Of a stretch of 19,218 bases of DNA, positions 2,756-18,303 are shown piece by piece. A model generated the notes under the pieces. The model ran no database searches. It was given only the letters and a program-made list of their open reading frames with translations, and was not told the DNA's origin. Position numbers and translations under genes: made by a program. The first letter of the stretch is position 1; every line of letters starts with the position of its first letter. Location: the NCBI GenBank assembly GCA_900766795.1, contig CAAFWX010000015.1, positions 1 through 19,218 on the forward strand, in the 5' to 3' direction. The DNA is from Oscillospiraceae bacterium. Its GTDB lineage: Bacteria; Bacillota_A; Clostridia; Oscillospirales; Ruminococcaceae.

Positions 2756-2802
2756 TGTTTTCCTCCTTTTTTGTTCGGAGTTCCCCTCCGTTTCTTTATT
2801 GT

Positions 2803-2811: not shown

Positions 2812-2866
2812 CCTTGATTGCAGCAAAAGCCATAGGCAGAATGACACGTTTGCTTACTATTTCGGT

Positions 2867-3055: not shown

Positions 3056-3056
3056 A

Positions 3057-3085: not shown

Positions 3086-3121
3086 AAGCACATAACAAAA
3101 CACAAACAAAACAGATTTTGC

Positions 3122-3158: not shown

Positions 3159-3185
3159 ATTCAGAAAAGGAAGAAGGAAACTGAT

Positions 3186-3953: not shown

Positions 3954-3970
3954 AGCGGAGGTGACGGAAT

Positions 3971-4864: not shown

Positions 4865-4904
4865 CCCGGTTCATTGTGCCGCTAAGGCATGATAAATAGA
4901 AAAA

Positions 4905-4918
4905 GCGGGGTAACCCGC
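4905..4918 (+). other. GNRA-tetraloop hairpin before the binding-protein gene
   Basis: GCGGG-GTAA-CCCGC forms a 5-bp G/C-rich stem with a GNRA-class loop in the 79-nt gap between permease and binding protein. It has no T-run and so is not a terminator. Such a hairpin could block decay or mark a cleavage point, raising binding-protein mRNA over permease mRNA (inference). Confidence 0.5.
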
Positions 4919-4943
4919 CGGACAAATGAAAGGAAAGAAAACT

Positions 4944-6095
4944 ATGAAAACAAGAATGAAATCACTGGTAAGCATTCTTACCGCGGGCATTATGTCCACC
5001 GCACTTCTCGCCGGCTGCTCCTCAGGCACATCAAGCTCCTCGAGCACCTCAAGCACCGATTCGAGCAGCACAACCGCCGGCACCACCACTGCTTCTCAGG
5101 CAGAGAGCGGCGCAGAGTCTGACGCTTCTTCGGCAGCCGAAACTCCCACCGTATCCGACGAGCTTATCACGGTTTACGGCGTAATCGACCCTCAGATTTC
5201 CGCGCAGAAGATTATTGCCGACAAGATGGGCTACTACGAGGAGTTCGGTCTGAATGTAAAGAACGAGTTCCTTTCTCAGGGCGGCGACATGACTTCCTAT
5301 ATTGCGAGCGGCACGGCGCAGGTTTCCTTTGAAACCTCCTACACCACCACTCCCGCAAAGGCAAGCGGCGTAGGCGTAAAGATGCTGGCGACCGTCAACA
5401 ACATCGGCGCAACTCAGGCAGTCATCGCTGCAAAGGACAGCGGCATTGTAACTCCTAAGGACATGGAAGGCAAGAAAATCGGCATGGGCGCAGGCTCGGG
5501 CGTACTGATTGCAATTCAGAAGTGCTGCGAGGAGTTCGGCGTTGACTTCGACTCCATCGAGTTTGTAACAATTGGCCCCTCCGACCAGCTTGCTGCAATG
5601 GAGAACGGCTCTATTGACATGATGGCTTGCTGGGAGCCTTGGGTATCCAACGCACAGACCGACCTCGGCGGTTATCTCCTCTTCACCGGCACACACTGCT
5701 ACTTTGAGGGTAACGACAAGGACGTTCCGTGGCTCAACTTCTACACCACCTTCCAGGTAACAGACGAGTTCCTTGCAAGCCACCCCGCAGAGTGCGAGGC
5801 ACTGCTTAAGGCTTACGCAAAGGCAACCGACTACATCAACAGCAACATGTCCGACGCAGCTGCAATCATTGCAGAGCAGCTCAACCTCGAGGCAGACCAG
5901 GTTCTCGGCATTATGCAGAAGAACGTATACGACATGGCTTGGACAGACGACTTTAAGGAAGCAACCGATTCTATCGCACAGAACCAGCTTGACAACGGCA
6001 ACATCGAGTTCATTCCCGAGTTCTCTGACTACGCAGACCCCACTCCCCTGAAGAACGCTTGTCCCGAGCTTTTCCGGGCAACCAACATCGGTTGA
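4944..6095 (+). CDS. Lipoprotein substrate-binding protein of the ABC importer (NMT1/SsuA-like)
   Basis: The 383-residue precursor has a basic n-region, a hydrophobic core and the lipobox LLAGC with the lipidated cysteine at 25, so the mature protein is anchored on the outer face of the membrane. Residues 26-70 are a Ser/Thr/Ala-rich flexible linker. From about 74 the NMT1/SsuA-like periplasmic-binding fold follows (IDPQISAQKI, MGYYEEFGL, a SGTAQVSFE region, then MMACWEPWVS). This subfamily includes binders of sulfonates, nitrate, thiamine-pyrimidine precursors and purine-related ligands. The ATG at 4944 is preferred over 4926, which lacks a ribosome binding site; AGGA ends 9 nt before 4944. 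Codon choice is visibly more uniform than in the neighbours (AAG, AAC, CTC, GAG), suggesting high expression. Hairpins flank the gene on both sides. Confidence 0.92.
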   Translation: MKTRMKSLVSILTAGIMSTALLAGCSSGTSSSSSTSSTDSSSTTAGTTTASQAESGAESDASSAAETPTVSDELITVYGVIDPQISAQKIIADKMGYYEEFGLNVKNEFLSQGGDMTSYIASGTAQVSFETSYTTTPAKASGVGVKMLATVNNIGATQAVIAAKDSGIVTPKDMEGKKIGMGAGSGVLIAIQKCCEEFGVDFDSIEFVTIGPSDQLAAMENGSIDMMACWEPWVSNAQTDLGGYLLFTGTHCYFEGNDKDVPWLNFYTTFQVTDEFLASHPAECEALLKAYAKATDYINSNMSDAAAIIAEQLNLEADQVLGIMQKNVYDMAWTDDFKEATDSIAQNQLDNGNIEFIPEFSDYADPTPLKNACPELFRATNIG

Positions 6096-6221: not shown

Positions 6222-7652
6222 ATGTATGATTTGATTTTGAAAAACGGCTGTGTTGTGACGTCAAAGGAAACCATCAGAGCCGATGTTGCCGTATCGGGCG
6301 AAAAAATCGCCAGAATCGACGAGAGTATCGACGAGGAAGCCGCAAGGGTCATCGACCTCAAGGGAAAGTACATTCTTCCCGGAGTGATTGACGCTCATAT
6401 TCACTGTATGTGTCCTTTTATGGGCTGCACAGGTCCGAACGATTTTTTCAAGACCTCGGTTGCGGGAGCATACGGCGGTGTTACCATGATAATCGACTTT
6501 TCCAACAGCAAGAAAGGCAAGCCCATGGTTGAGGCTGTTAAGGAAAAGCTGGAGCAGATGTCAAACAGCGCTGTTGATTATTCCGTTCACGGAAAGCTGG
6601 TTGACGGCGACGATTTTGCCATCGACGAAATCAAGACGCTGGTTGACATGGGAATCCCAACGTTTAAGATGTTTATGACCTACCGCAAGGACGGCATCAT
6701 GTGCGAGGACGACACCCTGATGAAAGCGTTCAAGAAGGCTGCCGAGGTTGGCGCAATTCCTCTGCTTCACTGCGAAAGCAACGCAATGGCAGAAGCCGCA
6801 ATGGACGAGAAAATAAAGCTCGGAAAGGTCACATGGAAGGACTTCGCCGAAGCAAAGCCCCCCGTATGCGAAACGGAAGCCTTTTCGAGAGCCTATTATT
6901 TCGCGAAGTCCGTCGGCTGCGCGATAATGGCGGTGCACACCACCGTAAAGCCCGCGCTTGATATTGCGCGCAGCGCGCATTCCGAGGACTATCCCCTCTA
7001 TGTTGAAACCTGCCCGCACTATCTGACGCTGTTCAAGGATAAGCTGGAGCGTCCTGACGGCAACCTGTGGCTGTGTTCGCCTCCTCTGAGAACTCCCGAC
7101 CAGGCGGAAAGCCTTTGGGACGGAATAGGGGACGGAACCATCGTAATCACAGGCTCCGACGACGGCGCCTACACCGCAGAGGAGAAGAACCGCTTCCTCG
7201 AAAGAAATGCGGACGGCAGCTATGTTCAGGACTTCACAAAGGTTGTAAACGGCATGGCGGGCATTGAAACGAGAATGCCTATCCTGCTTTCGGAGGGCGT
7301 TTCCAAAAACAGGGTTACGCTCAACAAGATTGCGGAGATAACCTCCACGAACATTGCGAAGATTTATGGAATGTACCCTCAAAAGGGCGAGATTGCGGTT
7401 GGCAGCGACGCGGATTTTGCGATTGTTGACATGAGCATGACCGACACCATTCATTATGAAACCCAGCACAACAACCTTGACTACAACCCCTATGAGGGAA
7501 TCAAGACCACAGGCGGCGTAGCAATGACCATTGCCCGCGGCAAGGTTATCATGGAGGACGGAAAGTTTGTTGGCGCAGAGGGCGCAGGCAAGCAGGTAAA
7601 GAGGTCCATCAGCAAGGACATTCTCGCCCGCTTCTCCGCTCTTAACGAGTAA
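6222..7652 (+). CDS. hyuA: Hydantoinase / dihydropyrimidinase-family cyclic amidohydrolase
   Basis: This 476-residue TIM-barrel enzyme hydrolyses cyclic ureides (hydantoins, dihydropyrimidines or allantoin) to N-carbamoyl amino acids. Metal-site motifs: DAHIH (His59, His61), the carbamylated lysine in FKMF (Lys149), His183 in LLHCES, His239 in AVHTT and Asp313 in GSDDG. Regions LPGVIDAH, YVETCPHYL and SPPLR are typical of D-hydantoinase/dihydropyrimidinase rather than classical AllB. Departures from the usual pattern are Cys-rich metal-loop sequence (HCMCPFMGC) and GSDDG where most members have GTDHC. The ATG has AGAGG 8 nt upstream. It is followed 2 nt later by a racemase gene, the classic pair for using both enantiomers. 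The symbol reflects similarity to E. coli HyuA (YgeZ) and is tentative; allantoin or a reduced urate product are possible substrates. Confidence 0.88.
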   Translation: MYDLILKNGCVVTSKETIRADVAVSGEKIARIDESIDEEAARVIDLKGKYILPGVIDAHIHCMCPFMGCTGPNDFFKTSVAGAYGGVTMIIDFSNSKKGKPMVEAVKEKLEQMSNSAVDYSVHGKLVDGDDFAIDEIKTLVDMGIPTFKMFMTYRKDGIMCEDDTLMKAFKKAAEVGAIPLLHCESNAMAEAAMDEKIKLGKVTWKDFAEAKPPVCETEAFSRAYYFAKSVGCAIMAVHTTVKPALDIARSAHSEDYPLYVETCPHYLTLFKDKLERPDGNLWLCSPPLRTPDQAESLWDGIGDGTIVITGSDDGAYTAEEKNRFLERNADGSYVQDFTKVVNGMAGIETRMPILLSEGVSKNRVTLNKIAEITSTNIAKIYGMYPQKGEIAVGSDADFAIVDMSMTDTIHYETQHNNLDYNPYEGIKTTGGVAMTIARGKVIMEDGKFVGAEGAGKQVKRSISKDILARFSALNE

Positions 7653-7654
7653 TT

Positions 7655-8386
7655 ATGAAAAGAATACTGATAATCAACCCGAACACCTCCGCCGAGATGA
7701 CGGAGCAGTGTCGGCTCACCGCGCAGCGCGTCAAATCCGACGATGTGGAGCTTGCTGTGATAAGCCCGTCCTTCGGTCCGAGGTCGCTTGAAAGCTTCTA
7801 CGAATACACGCTTGCGGGCTTTGCCAGCATACGGGAATATCTCCGTCTTGAAAAGGAATATGACGGAATCCTGCTTGCCTGCTTTGGCGACCCCTGCCTT
7901 TACGGGCTGAAAAACGTGAGCAAATGCCCCGCCATAGGCATTGCGGAGGCGAGCTTTTCGCTCTCCTGCGTTCTGGGTCAGCGGTTTGGGCTGCTGGTGA
8001 CAACGCCGTCTGCGGTGCCGATGATGTTCGACCTTATCAGGCAGTACGGCTTTGAAAGCCGCTGCGCCGCGATAGAAACAATAAACACCTCGGTGCTGGA
8101 CACCGAGGCGTTTAAGGATGAATCTGTCAGAAAGCTGATTGAAGCGGGCAAAGCCGCAATAAGCAGGGGCGCGGAGGTTCTTATCCTCGGCTGCGCGGGA
8201 ATGACGGGCATGAAAGCCGAAATAGAATCCGCGCTCCATGTTCCGGTGATTGACCCCGTGGAAGCGGGCTATATCATGCTTGAGGGCATGGTGAGGTGCG
8301 GAATCGACATTTCGCGAATCGGAATATATTCGCCGCCGCCCGCAAAGGAAATTATCGGCGGAGAATTACCGATAGGGATAAGCTGA
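7655..8386 (+). CDS. Hydantoin / allantoin racemase (Asp/Glu racemase superfamily)
   Basis: The 243-residue protein starts with the family signature IINPNTS (6-12) and carries the two catalytic cysteines in ACFGDP (Cys76) and GCAGMTGM (Cys180), which act as base and acid to invert the C5 centre of 5-substituted hydantoins or allantoin. Length fits HyuE/HpxA-type racemases. The ATG follows the hydantoinase stop by 2 nt with no strong ribosome binding site, so it is probably translated by coupling. It ends the rightward importer operon; the regulator gene on the other strand ends 4 nt further on with no clear terminator between, so the two transcripts probably overlap at their ends. Confidence 0.88.
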   Translation: MKRILIINPNTSAEMTEQCRLTAQRVKSDDVELAVISPSFGPRSLESFYEYTLAGFASIREYLRLEKEYDGILLACFGDPCLYGLKNVSKCPAIGIAEASFSLSCVLGQRFGLLVTTPSAVPMMFDLIRQYGFESRCAAIETINTSVLDTEAFKDESVRKLIEAGKAAISRGAEVLILGCAGMTGMKAEIESALHVPVIDPVEAGYIMLEGMVRCGIDISRIGIYSPPPAKEIIGGELPIGIS

Positions 8387-8390
8387 AGGC

Positions 8391-10001
8391 TCAATCCTTT
8401 TTCAGCAGGTCCATGGCGCACAAAGCAAGCCGCAGCGCGAAGATTTCCTCCGAATCATTCATGTCAACGCAGAGAATGGTCTTGATTTTGTTCAGACGGT
8501 TCGCGAGCGTGTTGCGGTGGAGGAAAAGCTTCTTGGCGGTTTCGGTGGTGTTGCAGCTGCAGCTGAGATACGCTCTTAGCGTTGGGATAAGCTCGCTTTC
8601 GTTCTCCGCGTCGTATTCTGCAAGCTGCTTTATGCTGTCGTCGTAGATTTTCTTCACTTCCTCGGGGTCAAGCCCGAGCAGAACGTGGTAGGAGGTCTGC
8701 GAGAAATAGGTGTACACCTTTTTGGGAGTTGTGCTGAACACGCTGAGTCTAATAGTCTGCATACTGTCCTGAAAAGCCGCAGAGACGGTGTTTATCCGCT
8801 TGTGGCAGCGCCCCACGCCGACAATGCAGGCGGAGCTGTTCGGCTTGTGACCAAGATAATCGTTGACCGCCTCGTACAGCTCTTTGCCGATTTCAATGCA
8901 GCTTGAAACCGCGACCGCAACGGAGGTTTCCACCGGGAAAAGCACGAAGATGTTGATAAAATTCAGATGGAAGCACATGAAGAAATTTGTTTTCATCTCT
9001 GTAAGCTTCTGCGAAAGCTCCTTTGTGAGAGCGGAAACCCTGTCGGCGTACTCGTCGTTTAGCTGAATGGTTATGCACACGCGCTTTTTCCTGAAGTCGA
9101 AGCCGTAGTAGTCGTAGATGTTCTGCAGACTTCCCGAGTTCCTGTTCTGCTCGTCCATCAGCATACTGTAGAACAAATCGAAGTGGCTCTGCGCCATTGC
9201 TTTAGGAACGGTTTTGCCGCCGTTTTCGAGAGCAAGCGAGAGGATACCCGCGCAGTATTCCGCTGCGTCTTTTTTCTCCTGCGCAGCCTCCGACGGAAGC
9301 AGCAGAACCGCATTTCTGTTCGGCAGGGCAATCGGCGCGAAGGCGAGCGTCTTGCCGTTTATGCTGAAATAGTTCTGCTCCCCCTTGCTGCGGCTCACCT
9401 CAATGATTTCGGTGGAGCCGGAAGACGGGATAAACTCCTTAAGCCGCCCGTCGGGGATATGGTACACCGAAACGTCCATAAGCTGCGTCAGAATAACGAT
9501 TTCTCCGAGGGCTTCCGAAAGGGCGGAAATCAAGGCTTTGATATCCGGGTCGGAATTGTATAGTTCGGTCAGGCGGCGGAAGATATCGGGAGCGAAAGTT
9601 TCCTTGTTGGCAGCGTCCGCGCTGATTGCTCTGTCCACCAAAGTGACGATTTCCGTGAAACGGTAGTAGTACGGAATTTCCACCAGCGGCAGACCGACCT
9701 CATTTGCGGCGTCTATCATACATTGCGGCAGGCGCTCAAAGAAACGGTTGACCTTTACGCCAAGACAGGAGCACCTTGCCTGCTTTAGGTTCTTGATTAT
9801 CTGAACCTGCGCGTTTTCGTCATCCTTGAAACAGAATCCCGAAGTGATGATAATCTCGTCCATCGCGGTCCATCTGAGAACATCGCAGTTGTCGATAACA
9901 TTGACGCCTGAGATGTGATTGGACAAATGCTCCTGTCCCGCAACGCAGACAATATCATGCAGCCCGCTGTCATTTATAAACCAGTTTACATCAAAATTCA
10001 T
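8391..10001 (-). CDS. PucR-family transcriptional regulator
   Basis: About 535 residues. The N-terminal PucR domain spans about 12-125 (VNVIDN, IIITSGFCF, CLGVKV, PLVEIPYYYRF), the middle has a weak GGDEF-like/CdaR-type region (about 300-430), and the C-terminal HTH_30 domain lies at about 470-530 (TLRAYLSCSCNTTETAKKL, then HRNTLANRLNKI). Members sense purine-derived or related metabolites and usually activate catabolic operons. It lies head-to-head with the AllC operon and tail-to-tail with the racemase gene, so it is the obvious local regulator of the whole island. The ATG at 10001 has GAGGG 8 nt upstream. N-terminal sensing in this family is poorly defined, so the inducer cannot be named. 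Confidence 0.9.
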   Translation of the reverse strand: MNFDVNWFINDSGLHDIVCVAGQEHLSNHISGVNVIDNCDVLRWTAMDEIIITSGFCFKDDENAQVQIIKNLKQARCSCLGVKVNRFFERLPQCMIDAANEVGLPLVEIPYYYRFTEIVTLVDRAISADAANKETFAPDIFRRLTELYNSDPDIKALISALSEALGEIVILTQLMDVSVYHIPDGRLKEFIPSSGSTEIIEVSRSKGEQNYFSINGKTLAFAPIALPNRNAVLLLPSEAAQEKKDAAEYCAGILSLALENGGKTVPKAMAQSHFDLFYSMLMDEQNRNSGSLQNIYDYYGFDFRKKRVCITIQLNDEYADRVSALTKELSQKLTEMKTNFFMCFHLNFINIFVLFPVETSVAVAVSSCIEIGKELYEAVNDYLGHKPNSSACIVGVGRCHKRINTVSAAFQDSMQTIRLSVFSTTPKKVYTYFSQTSYHVLLGLDPEEVKKIYDDSIKQLAEYDAENESELIPTLRAYLSCSCNTTETAKKLFLHRNTLANRLNKIKTILCVDMNDSEEIFALRLALCAMDLLKKD

Positions 10002-10028
10002 TTACATCACCCTCAATCAGTATATCAT

Positions 10029-10057
10029 ATTTTATCATGTTTTTGGCTGATTGACAA
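10029..10057 (-). promoter_or_regulatory. Probable promoter of the PucR-family gene
   Basis: On the minus strand TTGTCA (10057-10052) and TAAAAT (10034-10029) are 17 nt apart. A second candidate -10, TATACT (10024-10019), has no matching -35. For the divergent gene on the plus strand the best candidate is TTTACA (10001-10006), 16 nt from TATCAT (10023-10028), which would overlap this region; that one is weaker. Confidence 0.4.
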
Positions 10058-10070
10058 GTGTTTTTCACTT
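10056..10070. promoter_or_regulatory. Inverted repeat AAGTG-TTTTT-CACTT, possible operator
   Basis: A perfect 5-bp inverted repeat with a T5 spacer overlaps the -35 of the regulator promoter and lies just upstream of the AllC ribosome binding site. It could be an operator for local control of the divergent pair. It differs from the GTGCA palindromes at 2867 and 3043. Confidence 0.35.
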
Positions 10071-10093
10071 TTTTCAGAAAGGAAATGATATAT

Positions 10094-11326
10094 GTGACAG
10101 ACATGAACGCAAAACTAACGCACCGGATTGAGAAGCATCTTGTGAAAATTGCTCAGTTCAATTCCACGCCCGACGAGGGAATAACCCGTTTCCCGTTCAC
10201 CACGTCCGCGAAAGCTTGCGTGGAATATCTCGTGCAGACAATGCGCAATGCGGGTCTGGAAACCCGAATAGACGGAAGCGGAGCGGTCATCGGACGGCTT
10301 CGGGGGCTTTCGGACAAGACGATAGCAGTCGGAAGCCATTATGATTCGGTGCAGCACGGCGGCAGGTTTGACGGAATTGCGGGAGTTGTCTGCGGAATTG
10401 TTCTCGCGGAGTACCTAAAGGAGCAGGGCATAACGCCTGCTTATTCCCTTGAAATAATCGCAATGAACGACGAGGAGGGCGCTCGGTTCAAGGGCGGATT
10501 TTTCTCCTCAAAGGCAATGCTGGGTCAGCTTTCAGCCGAGGATTTGTACAATACCCTTGACGCGGACGGGATTTCCGTTGTGCAGGCAATGGCAGAGTGG
10601 GGACTGACGCCGCAGGAGCTTTTAGCTTCAAAGCGCGACATGACAAAGCTTAAGGCGTTCTTAGAGGTTCATATCGAGCAGGGTCCGCTGCTGGAGGCAG
10701 CCTCGAAGGAGATAGGCATAGTAAAGACGATTGTCGGGATGGAGCGCTTTCTGTGCGAGGTTAAGGGCAGGGCAGACCACGCGGGCACTACGCCGATGAA
10801 TATGCGAAAGGACGCGCTGCTGGCGGCGGCGAAAATCATATCCGCTGTGAACGAATATGCGCTTGCGGAAAGCGACTCGGTCGCCACGGTTGGCTATATC
10901 AGCGTGCTGCCGAACGAAATAAACACTATTGCGCAGAAGGTCACGTTCACGCTGGATATCCGCTCGGTGTCCGAGGAAAAGGTAAAGCGTATCACGGGCA
11001 ATTGCCTTGACCGCATAAAGAGCATCTGTACCGAGCAGGACATGGAGTTCTCCGTCGCGAACACCCTGTCGGTAAAGCCCACGGACATGGACGCGCAGCT
11101 AAAGCAGATGATTGCGCATTCCTGCGAGCAGCGCGGCTATTCCTTTATGGAAATGAACAGCGGCGCGGGGCATGATTCCCTGCCGATAGGAAAGGTAATT
11201 CCCACGGCGATGATATTCGTTCCCACGAAGGACGGCAGAAGCCACTGCCCCGAGGAGTGGTGCGAGTATTCGGATTTGGCAAAGGCAGTTGTAATACTGT
11301 CAGATATAATCAGCAGCATGAAATGA
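10094..11326 (+). CDS. allC: M20 Zn-dependent amidohydrolase, AllC / N-carbamoyl-amino-acid hydrolase type
   Basis: This 410-residue enzyme belongs to the family that converts allantoate to ureidoglycine, CO2 and ammonia, or removes the carbamoyl group from N-carbamoyl-L-amino acids. Metal ligands: GSHYD (His82), GRFDG (Asp93), NDEEG (Glu127/128), EVHIEQG (His193) and DGRSH (His384). The dimerisation/substrate region has DHAGTTPMNMRKDA (229-241). The frame is open from 10058, but AAAGGA (10078-10083) best serves the GTG at 10094, and this gives a family-normal length; ATG 10103 is the alternative. It is the first gene of a seven-gene operon and is followed after 12 nt by AllE, which consumes the product of AllC. 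That supports the allantoate assignment over a generic carbamoylase. Confidence 0.83.
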   Translation: MTDMNAKLTHRIEKHLVKIAQFNSTPDEGITRFPFTTSAKACVEYLVQTMRNAGLETRIDGSGAVIGRLRGLSDKTIAVGSHYDSVQHGGRFDGIAGVVCGIVLAEYLKEQGITPAYSLEIIAMNDEEGARFKGGFFSSKAMLGQLSAEDLYNTLDADGISVVQAMAEWGLTPQELLASKRDMTKLKAFLEVHIEQGPLLEAASKEIGIVKTIVGMERFLCEVKGRADHAGTTPMNMRKDALLAAAKIISAVNEYALAESDSVATVGYISVLPNEINTIAQKVTFTLDIRSVSEEKVKRITGNCLDRIKSICTEQDMEFSVANTLSVKPTDMDAQLKQMIAHSCEQRGYSFMEMNSGAGHDSLPIGKVIPTAMIFVPTKDGRSHCPEEWCEYSDLAKAVVILSDIISSMK

Positions 11327-11338
11327 GAGGTAAGAAAA

Positions 11339-12106
11339 ATGAGCTATCCTAAAGAACCGTTATCAACAAGGGCTGTCGTAAAGCCCGGACTTTATTCCGT
11401 TATCCCCGAAACAGGTCTTGTCAACAATGTTATCCCGAACATCAAGGGCTGCAAGGTCAGCATTGTATGCTCTCCGAAGATAGGCGCAAGCTTCGTGCAG
11501 TATGTAATCGAGGCGACCGAGAGCGGTCACACCGAATCCCCTATGGCGGCGCAGGAGGGCGTAGAGAGCTTTATCTACGTTGTCGAGGGCGCTGTGGAAG
11601 CGGTTGTGGGCGGCAAAAGCGTTTCGCTTACCGCGGGCGGCTACGGCTTTGCTCCCGCCGGCACGGGAATAAGCTTCGCAAACAAATCGGGCGCGCCCGC
11701 AAAGCTGCTTTTCTACAAGCAGAGATATGTTCCGCTTGAGGGTCACACGCCCTATGTTGTCACCGGCAACATAAACGACGTTGAGTACCGCATTTACGAC
11801 GAGATGGAGAACGTATTCATCAAGGATTTCCTGCCGACGGACGACCTAGCTTTTGATATGAATATGCACATTCTGGCATTCGCGCCCGGCGGCTGTCACC
11901 CGTTTGTGGAAACCCACGTTCAGGAGCACGGCGCGTATATGCTTAGCGGCGAGGGAATGTATCTTCTTGAGGATGTCTGGATGCCGATTAAGAAGAATGA
12001 TTTCATCTGGTTCGGTCCTTACGTTCAGCAGGGAGCCTACGGCACGGGCAGAGAGCTGTTTTCCTACATTTATTCCAAGGACTGCAACAGAGACGCAGAG
12101 ATATAA
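11339..12106 (+). CDS. allE: (S)-ureidoglycine aminohydrolase, bicupin
   Basis: The enzyme removes ammonia from (S)-ureidoglycine to give (S)-ureidoglycolate. The 255-residue protein closely resembles E. coli AllE (YlbA) along its length as I recall that sequence: the RAVVKPG start, PKIGASFV, KQRYVPLEGHTP, FDMNMHILAFAPG, ETHVQEHGAYMLSG and the C-terminal FSYIYSKDCNRDAEI. Two cupin domains lie at about 45-130 and 170-245. The Mn-binding residues of the second cupin are present (Glu191, His193, His197, Gln231, with the same 40-residue spacing as in the plant enzyme). GAGAGG lies 8 nt before the ATG. It follows AllC by 12 nt. This is the most diagnostic evidence that the operon handles allantoin-derived ureides. 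Confidence 0.92.
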   Translation: MSYPKEPLSTRAVVKPGLYSVIPETGLVNNVIPNIKGCKVSIVCSPKIGASFVQYVIEATESGHTESPMAAQEGVESFIYVVEGAVEAVVGGKSVSLTAGGYGFAPAGTGISFANKSGAPAKLLFYKQRYVPLEGHTPYVVTGNINDVEYRIYDEMENVFIKDFLPTDDLAFDMNMHILAFAPGGCHPFVETHVQEHGAYMLSGEGMYLLEDVWMPIKKNDFIWFGPYVQQGAYGTGRELFSYIYSKDCNRDAEI

Positions 12107-12116
12107 GGAGAGAAAT

Positions 12117-13055
12117 ATGAAAATCGTTGTACTTGAACCTATCGGCGTACCCTCCGAAAGAATCATGGAGGCGGCAAGGATTCTCGGCGAGCAGGCAGAG
12201 GTCGTTTGCTATGACAGCAAAATCACCGACACCGAGGGACTTATTGAGCGCGCAAAGGACTGCGACGTGCTTGTCCTTGCCAACATGAAGCTGGAGCAGG
12301 CGGTGCTTGAGGGCTGCCCGAACATTAAGCTTATCTCCGTGGCATTCACGGGAGTTGACCACATTCCGATGGCATACTGCCGCGAAAAGGGGATAATGGT
12401 GTGCAACTGCGCGGGCTATTCCAACACCGCTGTTTCCGAGCTTGTGTTCGGCATGGCGATAGCGCTTTACAGACGGCTTCTTCCCTGCGACAGCGCTGTG
12501 CGCGGCGGCGGAACAAGGGCAGGGCTTATCGGCTTTGAGCTGCGCAAAAAGAAGTTCGGCATAATCGGCACGGGCGCAATAGGGCTTAGAACCGCCGAGC
12601 TTGCAAAGGCGTTCGGCTGCGAGGTTTACGCCTATTCCCGAACCAAAAAGAGCATTGACGGCATAACCTATCTTGAACTGAACGAGCTTATGAAAACCTG
12701 CGACATTATCTCGGTGCACGTTCCTCTGAACGACAGCACGCGCGGTCTTGTCGGAAAGGAGCAGATTGCTTTGATGAAGCCCTCTGCGATACTGATTAAC
12801 ACCGCGCGCGGTCCTGTTGTGGACGCGCAGGCGCTTGCAGACGCGCTTAACAGCGGAGCGATTGCGGGCGCGGGTATTGACGTGTTCGACACCGAGCCGC
12901 CCATCAGCGCGGACAATCCCCTGCTGAATGTGCCTAACACCGTTCTGGCGCCGCATATCGGCTTTGCTACGCACGAGGCGCTTGAACTCCGCGCAGACAT
13001 GGTGTTTGAGAACATCAACGCATGGCTTGACGGCGCGCCGATAAACGTAATGTAA
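12117..13055 (+). CDS. D-2-hydroxyacid dehydrogenase (SerA/GhrB type), possible glyoxylate or ureidoglycolate oxidoreductase
   Basis: The 312-residue protein has the complete catalytic set Arg231 (NTARGP), Glu260 (DTEPP) and His280 (APHIGFA), and the Rossmann motif GTGAIG (151-156). After the second strand, where NAD-specific members carry an acidic residue, it reads YSRTKK (173-178), a Ser/Arg/Lys pattern expected for NADPH. It starts 10 nt after allE with AAGGAGAG before the ATG; the longer upstream frame overlaps allE and is rejected. It is not related to AllD, the usual ureidoglycolate dehydrogenase, yet takes that place in the operon. The two readings are reduction of glyoxylate to glycolate (favoured by the NADPH-like pocket) or a non-orthologous ureidoglycolate dehydrogenase. 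D-3-phosphoglycerate dehydrogenase is less likely given the short single-domain form. Confidence 0.85.
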   Translation: MKIVVLEPIGVPSERIMEAARILGEQAEVVCYDSKITDTEGLIERAKDCDVLVLANMKLEQAVLEGCPNIKLISVAFTGVDHIPMAYCREKGIMVCNCAGYSNTAVSELVFGMAIALYRRLLPCDSAVRGGGTRAGLIGFELRKKKFGIIGTGAIGLRTAELAKAFGCEVYAYSRTKKSIDGITYLELNELMKTCDIISVHVPLNDSTRGLVGKEQIALMKPSAILINTARGPVVDAQALADALNSGAIAGAGIDVFDTEPPISADNPLLNVPNTVLAPHIGFATHEALELRADMVFENINAWLDGAPINVM

Positions 13056-13073
13056 TAACCGGAGGATAAAGGT

Positions 13074-14321
13074 ATGTTCCAAGCAGACGCCAAAAGAATA
13101 GAAACTCATCTAAGACGGCTGAACGAGTATAACTCAACGCCCGAATTCGGCACGACAAGAGTGCTTTTCACCGAACCCGAGCTTGAAGGGCGCAGCTATA
13201 TCATCGGTCTGATGAAGGAACTCGGGCTGGAGGTTACGCAGGACAACATCGGAAACATTTTCGGCGTGCTTAAAGGAACGGACAGCGCTCTTGCTCCCGT
13301 CTGGACAGGCTCGCACTGCGACACGGTGCTAAATGCGGGAATGTTTGACGGAATGGCAGGAGTTATCGGCGGAATTGAGGCGCTGCGGCAGATAAAGGAG
13401 AGCGGCTTAGAGCATAAGCGCGATATCGCGGTGGTAATGTACACCTCGGAAGAGCCAACCCGTTTCGGGCTTTCCTGCCTCGGCAGCAGGGCGCTGTGCG
13501 GAAAGCTCACCGCAAAGGACGCAAAGGAGCTTTTCGATAAGGACGGAAAGACGCTCTGGCAGGTGCTGAAAGACCTCGGCTGCGACGCGGACAACATCGG
13601 GCAGGTGCAGAAGAAAAAGGGCGACGTTTTCGCCGCTGTGGAACTGCACATTGAGCAAAGCTCCTCTCTTGAAAAGGCGGGGAAAACCATCGGCGCGGTA
13701 AAGACGATTTGCGCGCCCGCAAACTACGAGATAACCATAAAAGGCGTGCAGTCTCATGCGGGCGGCACCTCAATGGCTGACCGCCGCGACGCGTTCACGG
13801 CAGGCTGCGCGCTTGCGCTGGAGCTTGAGCGGCTTGCGCGGCAAAGCAGCGCGGAATACGTTACCGCAACGGTTGGCAGGGTGAATGTTGTTCCCGGCGC
13901 GGTGAACGTAATCCCCGGCGAGGTGCAGATGTCCGTGGATATCAGATACACCGATATTGAGGCGCTAGACGAGATAATGTATTCAATCAACGAAGCCATT
14001 GCCCGCACCGAAAAGGAGCGCGGAGTATCCGTCACGGTAAACTGCCTTAACAGGGATATTCCCGCGCACTGCGACAAGGGGATTATTTCCTCTATAAAAG
14101 CCAACTGCGAGCGGTATGGCTATTCGTATAAGGATTGCATCAGCGGAGCGTACCACGATTCTCTCATGGTGAACGCATTCGCACCGGTGGCAATGATTTT
14201 TGTTCCAAGCAGAAACGGTATCAGCCACAGTCCCGAGGAATGGACGGATTTTGAGGATATCGCAAAGGGCACGAATATCCTTGCGGAGGTGCTTCTCGAA
14301 ACCGCCAACGGGGAGGCGTAA
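13074..14321 (+). CDS. Second, divergent AllC/UAH-type M20 amidohydrolase
   Basis: The 415-residue protein is a paralogue of the gene at 10094, with ligands His81 (SHCD), Asp92 (FDG), Glu126/127 (TSEEP), His192 (LHIEQ) and His386 (ISHSPEEW). Active-site surroundings differ: HIEQSSSLE replaces HIEQGPxLE, HAGGTSMADRRDA replaces HAGTTPMxxRKDA and SGAYHDS replaces SGAGHDS. This suggests a different substrate. Plant ureidoglycolate amidohydrolase belongs to the same family, so conversion of ureidoglycolate to glyoxylate, CO2 and ammonia is a reasonable guess; N-carbamoyl-amino acid hydrolysis is the alternative. GGAGG lies 8 nt before the ATG. The end of this gene contains the ribosome binding site of the lyase gene, which starts 2 nt later. 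Confidence 0.85.
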   Translation: MFQADAKRIETHLRRLNEYNSTPEFGTTRVLFTEPELEGRSYIIGLMKELGLEVTQDNIGNIFGVLKGTDSALAPVWTGSHCDTVLNAGMFDGMAGVIGGIEALRQIKESGLEHKRDIAVVMYTSEEPTRFGLSCLGSRALCGKLTAKDAKELFDKDGKTLWQVLKDLGCDADNIGQVQKKKGDVFAAVELHIEQSSSLEKAGKTIGAVKTICAPANYEITIKGVQSHAGGTSMADRRDAFTAGCALALELERLARQSSAEYVTATVGRVNVVPGAVNVIPGEVQMSVDIRYTDIEALDEIMYSINEAIARTEKERGVSVTVNCLNRDIPAHCDKGIISSIKANCERYGYSYKDCISGAYHDSLMVNAFAPVAMIFVPSRNGISHSPEEWTDFEDIAKGTNILAEVLLETANGEA

Positions 14322-14323
14322 TT

Positions 14324-15484
14324 ATGATAGCTTATTCTATGAACACAATGCCCCCTGCTGCGGCTGCCGCCGAAATTACAATGGAAAACGTAAAGCGTGC
14401 GCGTGCGTTTCACCAAAGCTTTCCCGAATATTTCCCCACGCCGCTTGTGGACATGGCGGCGCTTGCAAAGGCGCTGGGCTTAGGCGAGGTGCGCGTTAAG
14501 GACGAAAGCAAACGTTTCGGGCTGAACGCGTTCAAGGTGCTGGGCGCGTCCTACGCAATGGGAAAATACCTTGCGAAAAGCTATGGCATACTCGACGACG
14601 CCCTGCGACTTGATACGATAAAAGCGGCGCAGGCAGCAGGAAAGCCGGTTCATTTCTATGCGGCGACGGACGGAAACCACGGCAGGGCGGTTGCATGGAC
14701 TGCGGCAAAGCTGGGTCAGCCGGCAAGCATTTTTATGCCCGAAGGGTCATCCGAGGAGCGGCTGAACAATATAAAAGCCACCGGCGCATACGCCGAAATC
14801 ACGGATATGAACTACGACGACGCGGTGCGGTTTGCGGCGGCGCAGGCGGAGAAAACGGGCGGAGTAATAATTCAGGACACGGCGTGGGAGGGCTATGAGG
14901 AAATCCCGCTGAACATCATGGCAGGCTACGGCGTTATTGCCGACGAGGCGCTGGAATGCGGCTTCATGCCGACGCACGTTTTTTTGCAGGCGGGTGTAGG
15001 CTCTTTCGCGGGCGGAATTGCGGGCGCGTTCAGAGCTTACTGTAAAACAAGCGGCAGACAAATGCCGAAGATCATCGTCGCCGAATCCGACCGTGCGGAC
15101 TGCTATTACCGCAGCGCGCTGGCGGCGGACGGAAAGCCGCGCTTTGTGGGCGGCGAGATGAGAACGCTTATGGCAGGACTTGCCTGCGGCGAGCCGAATC
15201 CGATTGCTTTTGACATACTGAGAAACGAGGTGTCTTGCTTTGTTTCCTGCGGCGACAAGGTTGCCGCTGACGGCATGAGGATTTTGTCATCTATGGGAGT
15301 TACCTCGGGCGAAAGCGGCGCGGTCACCTGCGGACTTCTTGCGCATATCTGCATGGAACTGCCCGAACTGAAAAAAGAACTGGGATTGAATGAACTTTCT
15401 CGAGTGCTGCTTATCAGCACCGAGGGCGACACGGACAAGCAGCGCTATCAGGATATCGTATGGTTCGGGCGCAGCAATTTGTAA
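14324..15484 (+). CDS. dpaL: 2,3-diaminopropionate ammonia-lyase
   Basis: This 386-residue PLP enzyme (fold type II) cleaves 2,3-diaminopropionate to pyruvate and two ammonia. It matches E. coli YgeX/DpaL through its length as I recall it: KDESKRFGLNAFKVLG with the PLP lysine at 71, ATDGNHGRAVAW (Asp116), EITDMNYDDAVR, QDTAWEGY (Asp185), THVFLQAGVG, MAGLACGEPNP and LLISTEGDTD near the end. Both aspartates reported as catalytic in the E. coli enzyme are kept. GGGGAGG inside the end of the previous gene is its ribosome binding site. In E. coli the gene sits with ygeW, ygeY and hyuA; here two of those partners are also present but interleaved with allantoin-pathway genes. Confidence 0.93.
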   Translation: MIAYSMNTMPPAAAAAEITMENVKRARAFHQSFPEYFPTPLVDMAALAKALGLGEVRVKDESKRFGLNAFKVLGASYAMGKYLAKSYGILDDALRLDTIKAAQAAGKPVHFYAATDGNHGRAVAWTAAKLGQPASIFMPEGSSEERLNNIKATGAYAEITDMNYDDAVRFAAAQAEKTGGVIIQDTAWEGYEEIPLNIMAGYGVIADEALECGFMPTHVFLQAGVGSFAGGIAGAFRAYCKTSGRQMPKIIVAESDRADCYYRSALAADGKPRFVGGEMRTLMAGLACGEPNPIAFDILRNEVSCFVSCGDKVAADGMRILSSMGVTSGESGAVTCGLLAHICMELPELKKELGLNELSRVLLISTEGDTDKQRYQDIVWFGRSNL

Positions 15485-15496
15485 AGGAGTGTTTTC

Positions 15497-17080
15497 ATGA
15501 GAACACTGATAAAAAACGGCTTCGTCATAGACGGAAGCGGCAGCGAGGGCTTCTATGGAAGCGTTGTTATCGACGGCGAGCGCATTTCGTATGTGGGAAA
15601 ATCCGCTGCCGTCTGCTACGAGAGAGTGATTGACGCGAAGGGGAAGGTCGTTTGTCCCGGCTTTATCGACACTCACAGCCACAGCGACCTGAAGCTGCTT
15701 GAACAGCCGTTTCAGGCGCCTAAGATTTGTCAGGGAATAACCACCGAGGTGCTGGGTCAGGACGGAATATCAATGGCGCCGCTGCCGAAAAAATATACCG
15801 CGGAGTGGAAGAAAAACCTCGCGGGGCTTGACGGCGAAAGCGACAGGATAAGCTGGGAATACCCCGACACGGCAAGCTATCTGAGCGGGCTTGAGAACGC
15901 GGGAATATGCACAAACGCGGCGTATCTCATTCCGCACGGAAACGTCCGGCTTGAGGTTATGGGGCTTACCGACAGGAAAGCCACCCGCGAAGAATTGGAC
16001 GAGATGAAGCGCGTTGTGAAACGCGAGATGGAGGCGGGCGCGCTTGGTCTTTCCTCGGGGCTTATATACATTCCCTGCGCCTACGGTGATGTTGATGAAC
16101 TAACCGCGCTGTGCAGCGTGGTTGCGGAGTATGACGGAGTGTTTGTGGTGCACCAGCGCAGCGAAGCGGAGCTTATCCTCTCCTCAATGGACGAAATTCT
16201 CGAGGTTGCAAGAAGAAGCGGAGTAAGAATCCACTTCTCGCACTTCAAGGCTTGCGGCAAAAAGACGTGGGCGCTTGTTCCGCAGATGCTGGAAAAGCTG
16301 GACAAGGCGCGGGAGCAGGGAATCCGCATAAGCTTTGACCAGTACCCTTACGTTGCGGGCAGCACGACGCTTTCTGTCGTTATGCCGCCTTGGGTGCAGG
16401 CAGACGGAATGAACAGAATGCTAGAGATTCTTTCCGATGAAACGCAGCTTCAGAAAATCGAAAAGGAGATACTGAGCGAAAACTGCGGCTGGGACAATTT
16501 CTTTGATTTTGCAGGCGCGGAGAATATCTACATAACCTATGTAGGCAGCGAGAAAAACGCCGACCTTATCGGAAAGAGCATTGCGGAAATTGCGCAGCTT
16601 TGGGGAATGACCCCCGTCCGCGCGGCGGCGAAGCTACTGGTTGACGAAAAGAACGCCGTTTCGATGGTGGACTTCTATGGCACTGAGGAGCACGTCAAGC
16701 TGTTCCTTTCCCGACCCGAGCAGAACGTCTGCACCGACGGACTTCTTTCGGGAAAGCCGCACCCGAGAGTGTACGGCGCGTTCGCGCGAGTGCTTGGAAA
16801 ATACGTCAGGGAAGAAAGGCTTATGCCGCTTCACACTGCGGTTTACAAGATGACGGGCAAGGCGGCGCAGGCAATGTCGATAAAGGAACGGGGTCTGCTG
16901 AAAGAGGGGTTCTTTGCGGACGTTGTGATATTCGACAAGGACAAAATTATTGATAAGGGCGACTATAAGGACCCGTGCCATCACCCCGACGGAGTTGATA
17001 CCGTGATAGTAAACGGCAAAATCGTCTTTGCGCAGGGACAGAAATTCCGTATGTGCTCGGGCAAGGTTATTAGGAGATAA
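15497..17080 (+). CDS. N-acyl-D-amino-acid deacylase / D-aminoacylase-family amidohydrolase
   Basis: The 527-residue protein has the D-aminoacylase layout: a small N-terminal beta domain, then TIM barrel with DTHSHSD (His60, His62), the metal-binding cysteine in CQGITTEV (Cys78), SSGLIYIP, VVHQRSE (His219), FSHFK (His249), CTDGLLSG (Asp414) and the signature HPRVYGAFARVLGKYVRE. Family members deacylate N-acyl-D-amino acids or related N-substituted compounds, including dihydroorotase-like or N-carbamoyl substrates. Length is slightly above the usual 480-500. AAAGGAG lies 9 nt before the ATG and 4 nt after the lyase stop begins the gap. Linkage to dpaL and ygeY suggests it prepares a D-configured or N-substituted diamino acid for cleavage (inference). 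Confidence 0.9.
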   Translation: MRTLIKNGFVIDGSGSEGFYGSVVIDGERISYVGKSAAVCYERVIDAKGKVVCPGFIDTHSHSDLKLLEQPFQAPKICQGITTEVLGQDGISMAPLPKKYTAEWKKNLAGLDGESDRISWEYPDTASYLSGLENAGICTNAAYLIPHGNVRLEVMGLTDRKATREELDEMKRVVKREMEAGALGLSSGLIYIPCAYGDVDELTALCSVVAEYDGVFVVHQRSEAELILSSMDEILEVARRSGVRIHFSHFKACGKKTWALVPQMLEKLDKAREQGIRISFDQYPYVAGSTTLSVVMPPWVQADGMNRMLEILSDETQLQKIEKEILSENCGWDNFFDFAGAENIYITYVGSEKNADLIGKSIAEIAQLWGMTPVRAAAKLLVDEKNAVSMVDFYGTEEHVKLFLSRPEQNVCTDGLLSGKPHPRVYGAFARVLGKYVREERLMPLHTAVYKMTGKAAQAMSIKERGLLKEGFFADVVIFDKDKIIDKGDYKDPCHHPDGVDTVIVNGKIVFAQGQKFRMCSGKVIRR

Positions 17081-17084
17081 TTAC

Positions 17085-18242
17085 ATGGATGTAAAATCGA
17101 TACTCAAAAGGCTTATCAGAGCAAAAAGCATATCGGGCGAGGAGCAGAACGTTGTCGGCGAGATAAAAAGCATAATGCGGGAAGCAGGCTTTGACAAAAT
17201 CGAAACCGACAAGTACGGCAACGTTATCGGAACGATAAACGGCTCTCGCGAGGGAAAAACAATCCTGTTTGACGCGCACATAGACACCGTTCCCGTAAGC
17301 GATGCGCAGGAATGGGAGCATGACCCTTTCGCCGCCGAGGAAGCGGACGGCAAAATCTACGGCAGAGGCGCAAGCGATATGAAGGGAGCGCTCGCCGCAA
17401 TGCTTTATGCGGGCAGCATTCTGGCAAAGAAACGCGATTTTGCGGGGAAATTCCTTGTCAGCGGAGTTGTCCACGAGGAATGTTTTGAGGGAATTGCCGC
17501 GCGGGAAATCTCCTCTGTATACAAACCCGATTATGTTGTAATCGGCGAAGCGAGCGAGCTTAGAGTTAACATAGGTCAGCGCGGCAGAGCGGAGGTTGTA
17601 GTGGAAACCTACGGCAAATGCGCTCATTCCTCAAACCCGAAGGCAGGAGTGAATGCGGTGCTGTGCTGCTTTAAGCTGTGCGGCGAAATCGAAAAGCTGC
17701 CCGTTGTCTGTCATGAGCGGCTCGGGCAGGGAATCCTAGCACTGACGGATATCATTTCCTCTCCATACCCCGGCGCGTCGGTTATCCCGAACAAATGCCG
17801 TGTGACCTATGACAGGAGAACCGTTGCCGGCGAAACCCCCGAAAGCGTTCTCGCGCCGATAAAGAGCATAATAGAAAAGCTCTCCGCCGAGGACGAAAGC
17901 TTTTCTGCCCGCGCGTATATTGCGCATGGCAGCGAAACCTGCTATACGGGGGAAGAAATCAGCGGCGAGCGGTTTTTCCCGTCATGGCTTATGGACGAGG
18001 ACAGCGATTTCGTTAAAGCCGCCGTTGCGGGCGTTGAAAAATACGGAATCAAGACCGCTCTTGGCAGCTACTCTTTCTGTACGAACGGCAGCCATTACGC
18101 AGGAGAAGCGGGAATCGAAACCATCGGTTTCGGTCCGTCACAGGAGAACCTTGCTCATGTAAAGGACGAATACATCGATATAAGCAGCCTTGAGGCAGCC
18201 GCAAAGGGGTATGTCGGAATCGTCGAGGAGGTTCTGAAATAA
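17085..18242 (+). CDS. ygeY: M20 hydrolase, YgeY / ArgE-DapE type
   Basis: The 385-residue enzyme has FDAHIDTVPV (His65, Asp67), GRGASDMKG (Asp98), HEECFEG (Glu131/132), GEAS (Glu155) and ENLAHVKDEY (His358). Its similarity to E. coli YgeY is clear in NIGQRGRAEV, CAHSS, FPSWLMDEDSDFV and SFCTNG, then IETIGFGP. YgeY is annotated as a selenium-metabolism-linked hydrolase and is part of the set linked to anaerobic urate catabolism; its substrate is not settled to my knowledge. The ATG at 17085 has AGGAG 9 nt upstream, overlapping the previous stop; the longer frame from 17028 lies in the deacylase gene and is rejected. It is the last gene before the terminator at 18274. A dipeptidase or ArgE-like deacetylase function is the alternative. 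Confidence 0.85.
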   Translation: MDVKSILKRLIRAKSISGEEQNVVGEIKSIMREAGFDKIETDKYGNVIGTINGSREGKTILFDAHIDTVPVSDAQEWEHDPFAAEEADGKIYGRGASDMKGALAAMLYAGSILAKKRDFAGKFLVSGVVHEECFEGIAAREISSVYKPDYVVIGEASELRVNIGQRGRAEVVVETYGKCAHSSNPKAGVNAVLCCFKLCGEIEKLPVVCHERLGQGILALTDIISSPYPGASVIPNKCRVTYDRRTVAGETPESVLAPIKSIIEKLSAEDESFSARAYIAHGSETCYTGEEISGERFFPSWLMDEDSDFVKAAVAGVEKYGIKTALGSYSFCTNGSHYAGEAGIETIGFGPSQENLAHVKDEYIDISSLEAAAKGYVGIVEEVLK

Positions 18243-18273: not shown

Positions 18274-18303
18274 AACCGCCCGGGCTTATGTTCGGGCGGT
18301 TTT
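18274..18303 (+). terminator. Intrinsic terminator of the AllC-YgeY operon
   Basis: AACCGCCCG (18274-18282) and CGGGCGGTT (18293-18301) form a perfect 9-bp stem with a 10-nt loop, ending in TTTTGTCTGT. It lies 31 nt after the YgeY stop codon. Confidence 0.85.

What the first reader, a model, noticed from the sequence alone, without database searches (positions are those of the whole stretch)
6222..18242. Two purine-degradation gene sets merged: allantoin-type (AllC, AllE) and anaerobic urate-type (HyuA, DpaL, YgeY)
AllE is diagnostic for the ureidoglycine step, while DpaL, a YgeY-like hydrolase and a HyuA-like hydantoinase belong to the E. coli ygeW-ygeX-ygeY-hyuA set linked to anaerobic urate use. 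AllD, YgeW carbamoyltransferase and carbamate kinase are absent here. A locus holding both halves suggests either two parallel routes or one pathway not described as such. Basis: gene identities are read from motifs; the pathway is inferred.
Basis: partly seen in the sequence, partly recalled or inferred. Interest (0 to 1): 0.75.

Follow-up and report, generated by a model that had tools for sequence, protein, structure and literature searches.

The report
Two-arm ureide and hydantoin degradation operon
A probably anaerobic bacterium carries, in one operon, the enzymes to break down both the classical purine waste allantoin and a chemical cousin from the newly found oxygen-free urate pathway, possibly sharing one ring-opening enzyme between them.

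Summary
Genes 10103-18242 form one tight operon joining an allantoate arm to a 2,3-diaminopropionate arm. So allantoate can go to glyoxylate, and 2,3-diureidopropionate (DUPA) to pyruvate. The "HyuA" (6222-7652) is not HyuA but a separate hydantoinase clade that elsewhere sits with UacY and YgeY. The composite recurs, rearranged, in an Intestinimonas metagenome assembly (14 of the window's genes), where no allantoinase or SsnA passed its cut-off. Allantoin and ureidomethylhydantoin (UMH) differ by one CH2, and a published D-hydantoinase opens allantoin. My reading: one importer and one hydantoinase feed two homologous arms. Gene families, operon layout and recurrence are shown; substrates and the shared step are inferred. 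The host genome is not held, so upstream urate steps could not be checked.

The parts
10103..11326 (+). AllC1: allantoate amidohydrolase (allantoate -> ureidoglycine)
   Evidence: NF006771 456 bits over cut-off 399 (scanned from the alternative GTG at 10058; the ATG is at 10103); keeps the HAGTTPM and GAGHD motifs of E. coli AllC; PDB best 3n5f L-carbamoylase 268, AllC 1z2l 236, UAH 188 bits
11339..12106 (+). AllE: (S)-ureidoglycine aminohydrolase
   Evidence: TIGR03214 328 bits, cut-off 200; E191, H193, H197 and the conserved Gln after residue 230 match E. coli AllE; 47% to E. coli AllE
12117..13055 (+). D-2-hydroxyacid dehydrogenase, probably NADPH glyoxylate reductase (glyoxylate -> glycolate)
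   Evidence: PF02826/PF00389; R231, E260, H280 and the YSRT motif conserved in window, L071 and L040; lies between AllE and UAH in L040 and L071 too
13074..14321 (+). UAH: ureidoglycolate amidohydrolase (replaces AllD), called AllC2 in the calls
   Evidence: PDB best hit Arabidopsis UAH 4pxe 279 bits; clade with it 100/98; SEEPTRFG and AYHDS motifs
14324..15484 (+). DpaL/YgeX: 2,3-diaminopropionate ammonia-lyase
   Evidence: NF006058 477 bits over cut-off 276; PDB 4d9g 344 bits; K71, D116, D185 equal E. coli K77, D120, D189
15497..17080 (+). UacY-type D-aminoacylase (2-ureido group of DUPA)
   Evidence: 53-55% to the D-aminoacylases of Cetobacterium (SsnA-linked), Rhodovastum, G956 and C. difficile; in a tree without outgroup its group is a sister to theirs
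17085..18242 (+). UacY-linked YgeY (3-ureido group)
   Evidence: NF009555 454 bits; 56-58% to YgeY beside UacY in Cetobacterium and Rhodovastum, 32-36% to Veillonella and E. coli YgeY
18274..18301 (+). intrinsic terminator ending the operon
   Evidence: 12-pair stem with T-rich tail, consensus match only
6222..7652 (+). Hyd: hydantoinase of a separate clade, proposed shared ring opener for allantoin and UMH
   Evidence: TIGR02033 414 bits over cut-off 393; tree; Tyr154, Ser286, Asn343 as in HyuA, not as in AllB
7655..8386 (+). hydantoin/allantoin racemase family
   Evidence: PF01177 170 bits; PDB 3qvj 132 and allantoin racemase 5lfd 128 bits
8391..10001 (-). PucR-type purine regulator
   Evidence: PF07905 and PF13556
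3186..3953 (+). ABC importer, ATPase
   Evidence: 62% and 58% in allantoin loci L040 and L071, 69% in composite L072
3971..4864 (+). ABC importer, permease
   Evidence: 59%, 52%, 63% in L040, L071, L072
4926..6095 (+). ABC importer, substrate-binding protein (NMT1-like)
   Evidence: PF09084; 47% in L040, 56% in L072
1997..2755 (-). small amidohydrolase (PF04909), associated, role unknown
   Evidence: 63% in L078
1248..1991 (-). second small PF04909 amidohydrolase, associated, role unknown
   Evidence: 59% in L078
74..1246 (-). M20 aminoacylase/CpsA-like hydrolase, associated, role unknown
   Evidence: TIGR01891 317 bits over cut-off 154; 46% in L078

Best explanation
This is a two-arm catabolic locus for ureido-substituted hydantoins. 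Proposed mechanism: the ABC importer brings in the ureides; the hydantoinase Hyd opens the ring of allantoin (5-ureidohydantoin) and of its one-carbon-longer homologue UMH (5-ureidomethylhydantoin); the racemase supplies the hydrolysable enantiomer. Allantoate then goes AllC1 -> ureidoglycine, AllE -> ureidoglycolate, UAH -> glyoxylate + CO2 + NH3, dehydrogenase -> glycolate. DUPA goes UacY -> albizziin, UacY-linked YgeY -> 2,3-diaminopropionate, DpaL -> pyruvate + NH3. PucR controls it. Shown here: gene identities at family or subfamily level, single-operon layout, recurrence in another genome. Inferred: substrates, shared ring opening, glyoxylate reduction, regulation.
For: Operon spacing and terminator-like hairpin. 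UAH by tree and motifs. The DpaL-YgeY-UacY trio sits inside an SsnA/molybdoenzyme urate cluster in Cetobacterium; biochemistry of UacY, HyuA, YgeY and YgeX in Li et al. 2025 (PMC12507026). The composite recurs in G956 in another gene order: AH2-AH1-M20D-DpaL-YgeY-UacY-ABC(3)-Hyd-PucR(-)-AllC1-AllE-UAH. High-ranking hits share longest-contig lengths (20401 for AllE, UacY and Hyd; 9332, 14729, 9269 for AllE and UacY; 9160 for AllE and Hyd). G956 has no TIGR03178 allantoinase over cut-off, while the 4 other AllE genomes in that call do. A Geobacillus D-hydantoinase opens allantoin at 3.6 U/mg, like hydantoin (3.5) and dihydrouracil (4.0) (PMC7175128 Table 3); the NCBIfam model that Hyd passes is also named D-hydantoinase.
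Against: No substrate was tested. G956 is a metagenome assembly whose completeness is not told, so a missing allantoinase or SsnA may be a gap; the window's own genome is not held. Only 1 of 31 AllE loci examined also has Hyd and UacY in the fetched stretch. Hyd kin of G1365 and G1285 sit in stretches without AllE, so Hyd may serve only the DUPA arm. G956 shows neither the dehydrogenase nor the racemase in this cluster. The window's UacY is in a sister group of the SsnA-linked ones. Hyd keeps HyuA-like, not AllB-like, active-site residues.
Confidence: 0.5

Rival explanations
1. Two nitrogen-scavenging modules are co-transcribed but chemically separate: Hyd, UacY, YgeY and DpaL handle UMH (or 5-ureidodihydrouracil) only, and allantoate is imported as such or made by an allantoinase elsewhere.
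For: Hyd kin travel with UacY-YgeY(-DpaL) and an NCS1-like permease without AllE (L130, L131). The same ABC importer occurs in an allantoin cluster with its own AllB (L040). G778 keeps AllB on another contig from its AllE locus.
Against: G956, with the same fused set, shows no AllB over cut-off in what is held of it; only one hydantoinase lies in each of the two fused loci.
Confidence: 0.27
2. The DUPA-type arm acts on something other than purine products, for example plant albizziin, other diaminopropionate derivatives or N-carbamoyl-D-amino acids from hydantoins.
For: No SsnA, YgfK or XdhD in the window; no SsnA over cut-off in G956 or G1285; G1365 carries both a full urate cluster with a HyuA-type enzyme and a second Hyd-UacY-YgeY-DpaL-permease set, so the second set may have another substrate. 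D-aminoacylases are broad (own knowledge).
Against: DpaL needs a 2,3-diaminopropionate-level product (own knowledge); the trio is homologous at 53-56% to that of the SsnA-linked Cetobacterium cluster. In G1314 the SsnA stretch shows no HyuA, while a Hyd relative (44%) lies elsewhere in the genome, so Hyd kin may well act on UMH.
Confidence: 0.13
3. The host is an ordinary urate degrader whose SsnA, UacX/YgfK and XdhD lie elsewhere, and this locus is just its lower pathway next to an allantoin operon.
For: In G1365 an SsnA cluster and a Hyd module coexist at separate loci; G778 has AllE and SsnA on separate contigs.
Against: The SsnA loci of G1365 and (cut by the contig end) G778 carry their own HyuA-type hydantoinase, unlike Hyd; G956 shows no SsnA over cut-off.
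Confidence: 0.1

Closest known systems
Reductive urate pathway, C. difficile variant (Li et al. 2025, PMC12507026); Cetobacterium somerae plasmid cluster NZ_CP092520
   Same: DpaL, UacY-type D-aminoacylase and UacY-linked YgeY, 53-56% identical
   Different: No SsnA, YgfK or XdhD in the window (UacX not queried); the hydantoinase is another clade; fused with the ureide arm
E. coli allantoin regulon (allB, allC, allE, allD, allFGH)
   Same: AllE and an AllC-type allantoate amidohydrolase
   Different: No AllD, FdrA (AllF), YlbE (AllG) or YbcF in the window (AllH not queried); Hyd is not AllB; AllC1 is another lineage than E. coli AllC
Plant ureide pathway (AAH, UGlyAH, UAH)
   Same: The same three successive reactions by homologues, UAH included
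   Different: Bacterial operon, followed by a glyoxylate-reductase-like enzyme; AllC1 was not compared with plant AAH
Hydantoinase / racemase / carbamoylase (hyu) clusters
   Same: Hydantoinase next to a hydantoin-racemase family gene; also adjacent in L133 and L134
   Different: Downstream enzymes are AllC1, AllE, UAH, DpaL, UacY and YgeY instead of one carbamoylase

Membership tests
Reductive urate pathway (Li et al. 2025) | SsnA, the marker gene | tested here: not met
   no tblastn hit in the window; the rest of the host genome is not held
Reductive urate pathway (Li et al. 2025) | XdhD and YgfK (or UacX) | tested here: not met
   no XdhD or YgfK hit in the window; UacX was not available as a query
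Reductive urate pathway (Li et al. 2025) | HyuA orthologue | tested here: not met
   Hyd lies outside the HyuA clade; 32% identity to E. coli and Cetobacterium HyuA; C. difficile HyuA was not available
Reductive urate pathway (Li et al. 2025) | UacY or YgeW for the 2-ureido group | tested here: met
   UacY-type, 54-55% to Cetobacterium and C. difficile, but in a sister group of them; the C. difficile protein P0112 was not matched to accession Q181U6; activity not tested
Reductive urate pathway (Li et al. 2025) | YgeY and DpaL | tested here: met
E. coli-type allantoin pathway | AllB allantoinase | tested here: not met
   Hyd 286 bits vs cut-off 358, outside the AllB clade
E. coli-type allantoin pathway | AllD plus AllFGH/AllK | tested here: not met
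   no hits for AllD, FdrA, YlbE, YbcF; YlbF (AllH) was not queried
Plant-type ureide pathway | allantoate amidohydrolase | tested here: met
   NF006771 over cut-off, AllC motifs; L-carbamoylase 3n5f scores higher than AllC in the PDB; activity not tested
Plant-type ureide pathway | ureidoglycine aminohydrolase | tested here: met
   TIGR03214 over cut-off, metal residues kept
Plant-type ureide pathway | ureidoglycolate amidohydrolase | tested here: met
   clade with Arabidopsis UAH 100/98, shared motifs (the Arabidopsis row is a long branch); activity not tested
Shared hydantoinase hub | one enzyme opens both allantoin and UMH | not testable with these tools
   needs enzyme assay

The most novel reading that the evidence does not exclude
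One hydantoinase of a clade that I found no description of joins the classical (oxidative) ureide pathway and the reductive urate pathway: it opens both 5-ureidohydantoin (allantoin) and 5-ureidomethylhydantoin, and the products are sorted into two parallel, homologous arms encoded in one PucR-linked operon. This would qualify the view in Percudani's 2025 commentary that intermediates of the aerobic pathway cannot enter the anaerobic one and that allantoin has a dedicated route. It would also define SsnA-less scavengers of UMH released by urate-reducing neighbours.
Probability: 0.42. Interest if true: 0.72.

Novelty: new variant of a known kind. Interest (0 to 1): 0.6.

Why it matters
The reductive urate pathway was resolved only in 2025. 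The survey in Li et al. was anchored on SsnA, so lower pathways away from SsnA, such as this one and those in L130, L131 and Rhodovastum, could be missed. If the two arms share a hydantoinase, gut anaerobes could feed on both the allantoin that most mammals excrete and intermediates leaked by urate reducers, with a bearing on purine cross-feeding and host urate balance. It also gives a testable, plant-type ureidoglycolate amidohydrolase in a bacterial operon and a hydantoinase clade to characterise.

Tried and rejected
AllD replacement by the D-2-hydroxyacid dehydrogenase: considered, because (S)-ureidoglycolate has the spatial arrangement of a D-2-hydroxy acid (own reasoning). Put second because a UAH sits beside it, making glyoxylate, and the YSRT motif suggests NADPH (motif meaning recalled). 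Not excluded.

Hyd as HyuA or AllB: rejected by the tree and NCBIfam cut-offs.

Carbamoylase role for 13074-14321: L-carbamoylase 3n5f scores close (264 vs 279 bits), but tree and motifs favour UAH. For 10103-11326 the carbamoylase is the best PDB hit (268 vs 236 for AllC); I keep allantoate amidohydrolase because of the NCBIfam cut-off, motifs and neighbours.

Shared promoter motif between 2756-3185 and 10002-10102: best match 13 of 16; 14 of 40 mononucleotide shuffles reached 13, so no signal.

Mutual exclusion of UAH and AllD: 3 UAH, 14 AllD, 0 both among 31 AllE loci. My hand calculation for a random zero overlap is about 0.15, so suggestive only.

DpaL scan of genome contigs: 32 loci, none with the composite. 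Hyd search in 391 genomes of one class: 0 at E 1e-110. Viral contigs gave no confirmed relative for Hyd or UacY; plasmids none for Hyd at E 1e-110. Contig-length coincidences are indirect: those among lower-ranked hits (28932, 21163, 22383) may be chance. Structure prediction was not used: the folds are not in doubt, and ligand choice would not follow from it.
Full report
What is there. The window holds 16 intact genes with family matches and one further ORF without any. On the plus strand, AllC1 (10103-11326), AllE, a D-2-hydroxyacid dehydrogenase, a second M20 amidohydrolase, DpaL, a D-aminoacylase and a YgeY-type hydrolase (to 18242) are spaced 12, 10, 18, 2, 12 and 4 bp apart. A 12-pair terminator-like hairpin follows at 18274-18301. 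The boundary between the two supposed halves is the 2-bp gap between the second amidohydrolase and DpaL, so they are one transcription unit by layout. Upstream lie an ABC importer (3186-6095), hydantoinase Hyd (6222-7652), a racemase, and PucR on the minus strand.

The ureide arm is complete from allantoate. The second 'AllC' scores best against Arabidopsis ureidoglycolate amidohydrolase in the PDB (279 bits; L-carbamoylase 264; E. coli AllC 205). In a tree of 18 proteins it forms, with three relatives (L040, L071, L072), a clade with that enzyme supported 100/98; 5 of 18 rows, these, carry SEEPTRFG and AYHDS, and the other 13 do not (the tree tool flags the Arabidopsis row, the carbamoylase and one L040 row as long branches). 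AllC1 keeps the AllC motifs GAGHD and HAGTTPM, though its best PDB hit is the carbamoylase. AllE keeps the metal residues. So AllD is not needed: ureidoglycolate is hydrolysed to glyoxylate, and the dehydrogenase, with Arg-Glu-His and a YSRT motif conserved in three loci, is best read as a glyoxylate reductase (inference; the meaning of the motif is recalled). AllC1-AllE-dehydrogenase-UAH occurs in the same order in L071, and AllE-dehydrogenase-UAH in L040, beside the same ABC importer genes.

The diaminopropionate arm is the UacY type. Li et al. 2025 (PMC12507026; outline and abstract, the first of three parts of section 4, sections 13 and 29, and passages) showed UMH -> DUPA by HyuA, DUPA -> albizziin by UacY or YgeW, and albizziin -> pyruvate by YgeY plus YgeX (DpaL). 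In C. difficile UacY replaces YgeW and YqeA. The window's D-aminoacylase is 54% identical to the one in a cluster on a Cetobacterium somerae plasmid (dpaL, YgeY, D-aminoacylase, SsnA, permease, guanine deaminase, molybdoenzyme, hydantoinase) and 55% to a C. difficile D-aminoacylase. Its YgeY is 55-58% identical to YgeYs beside UacY (G956, Cetobacterium, Rhodovastum) but 32-36% to the Veillonella and E. coli YgeYs beside YgeW. DpaL keeps the lysine and both aspartates of E. coli YgeX (roles recalled). A caution: in a tree of 15 D-aminoacylases without outgroup, the window's group (8 rows) is parted from the group of 7 that holds the Cetobacterium, C. difficile and G956 proteins, each at 100/100.

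The hydantoinase is neither HyuA nor AllB. In a tree of 34 proteins Hyd belongs to a clade of 16 (100/100) that includes G956, Tepidanaerobacter, Desulforamulus and Treponema primitia proteins. The HyuA clade (E. coli, two Desulfosporosinus, an Oscillospiraceae bacterium, G305) and the AllB clade are separate (the tool warns of several long branches outside Hyd's own clade, which make the deeper joins less sure). In 289 genomes of one phylum, 5 have Hyd kin at E 1e-110. The two closest (53-54%) lie in DpaL-YgeY-Hyd-NCS1-like permease-UacY (L131) and YgeY-Hyd-permease-UacY (L130). A third (45%) lies beside a YgeW-type cluster that has a HyuA of its own, and two (40 and 44%) are adjacent to a racemase homologue. 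G1365 carries L131 in addition to an SsnA cluster with its own HyuA-type enzyme and its own DpaL-YgeY-UacY; the two sets are 60-67% identical in the shared enzymes but 30% in the hydantoinase. Hyd therefore marks a second module that fits uptake of an external hydantoin. This also counts against a simple 'lower urate pathway' reading. In G1314, by contrast, the stretch around SsnA shows no HyuA and a Hyd relative lies elsewhere, so there Hyd kin may serve the urate route.

The composite is conserved. AllE was sought in 391, 58, 188, 394 and 247 genomes, with 7, 1, 3, 9 and 14 carriers (E 1e-20 in the first, 1e-40 in the rest); three repeats removed, 31 carriers. Around all 31 I fetched stretches of 6.8 to 19.9 kb, many cut by contig ends. 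By the rule, 3 of 31 have UAH, 14 of 31 AllD, 0 both, and 1 of 31 has Hyd and UacY. That one, G956 (its Hyd is identical to P0245, named Intestinimonas sp. MAG), holds AH2-AH1-M20D-DpaL-YgeY-UacY-ABC(3)-Hyd-PucR(minus)-AllC1-AllE-UAH, at 46-69% identity apart from PucR (31%). It shows neither the dehydrogenase nor the racemase there. An IS110-type transposase gene and a serine recombinase flank it. Identical longest-contig lengths among high-ranking hits point to further composites in metagenomes: 20401 (AllE, UacY, Hyd), 9332, 14729, 9269 (AllE, UacY), 9160 (AllE, Hyd); no DNA of these contigs was read. In the UacY tree, G956 groups with the G1365 second module (99/97), apart from the window's group, while Hyd of window and G956 group together (99/95). 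This may mean that the arms were joined or exchanged more than once; not tested further.

Why one hydantoinase may serve both arms. The four other AllE genomes put to the test have an allantoinase TIGR03178 over cut-off (best 420-437 bits each). G956 has none: its best hits are C20 at 263 bits, which in the tree groups away from AllB and Hyd, and Hyd itself at 254. It has no SsnA over cut-off either (183 vs 455). Allantoin and UMH differ by one methylene (chemistry, own knowledge). A Geobacillus D-hydantoinase hydrolyses allantoin at 3.6 U/mg, beside 3.5 for hydantoin and 4.0 for dihydrouracil (PMC7175128, passages and the tables section read). Against it: genome completeness is untold, Hyd kin occur without AllE, Hyd's active-site residues follow HyuA and not AllB, and the importer also occurs with AllB (L040). 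Percudani's commentary (PMC12990295, whole text) states that intermediates of the aerobic pathway cannot enter the anaerobic one. Liu et al. 2025 (Nat Microbiol) is not held and was not read.

Novelty. No paper in the held library has 'ureidoglycine aminohydrolase' with 'diaminopropionate'. Three have 'diaminopropionate ammonia' with 'allantoin': I looked up 'allantoin' passages in one, read one whole (PMC12990295), and saw only the listing of the third (a Salmonella model paper). A search for hydantoinase, allantoin, D-aminoacylase and gene cluster (12 of 14 papers listed) was read as a listing, apart from PMC7175128, PMC12507026 and the outline of PMC4016543. Each reaction is known; the fusion, the UacY modules away from SsnA and the Hyd clade were not found described in these searches. 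I rate it a new variant of a known kind.

Noticed in passing
window 3046-3059: The only perfect 14-bp palindrome of the window (CAATGTGCACATTG; mean 1.1 in 20 mononucleotide shuffles of the whole window, so notable by place and not by number) overlaps the -35 box of the promoter-like site at 3057-3085 before the ABC genes; a similar GTGCATTGTGCAC lies at 2867, and G956 has TTGTGCCATATGCACAA before its ABC genes. Possible operator.
   Followed up: partly
window 74-2755 (-): Two small PF04909 amidohydrolases and an M20 hydrolase travel with the locus in G956 as well (46-63%); their substrate is unknown.
   Followed up: partly
L131 (G1365:C21) and L157 (G1365:C13): One genome holds two paralogous DpaL-YgeY-UacY sets: one with SsnA and a HyuA-type enzyme, one with Hyd and an NCS1-like permease next to a sigma-54 regulator (best NCBIfam match PrdR, below cut-off).
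   Followed up: partly
L078:13035-14312 and L072:12800-14428: In G956 the composite cluster is flanked by an IS110-type transposase ORF that also holds an acetyltransferase domain and by a serine recombinase, so it may have moved as a block.
   Followed up: no
L121 (Rhodovastum plasmid NZ_OW485603): dpaL-YgeY-D-aminoacylase-MFS transporter next to a sigma-54 regulator, with no SsnA annotated in the stretch, between transposases: another free-standing lower module.
   Followed up: no
window 6222-7652: The 4 Hyd-clade sequences compared have SDD where the 4 HyuA and AllB sequences have (S/T)DH at the metal aspartate, a clade signature of unknown effect.
   Followed up: no
window 18617-19051 (-): ORF of 144 aa with no Pfam or NCBIfam match beyond the operon terminator.
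   Followed up: no
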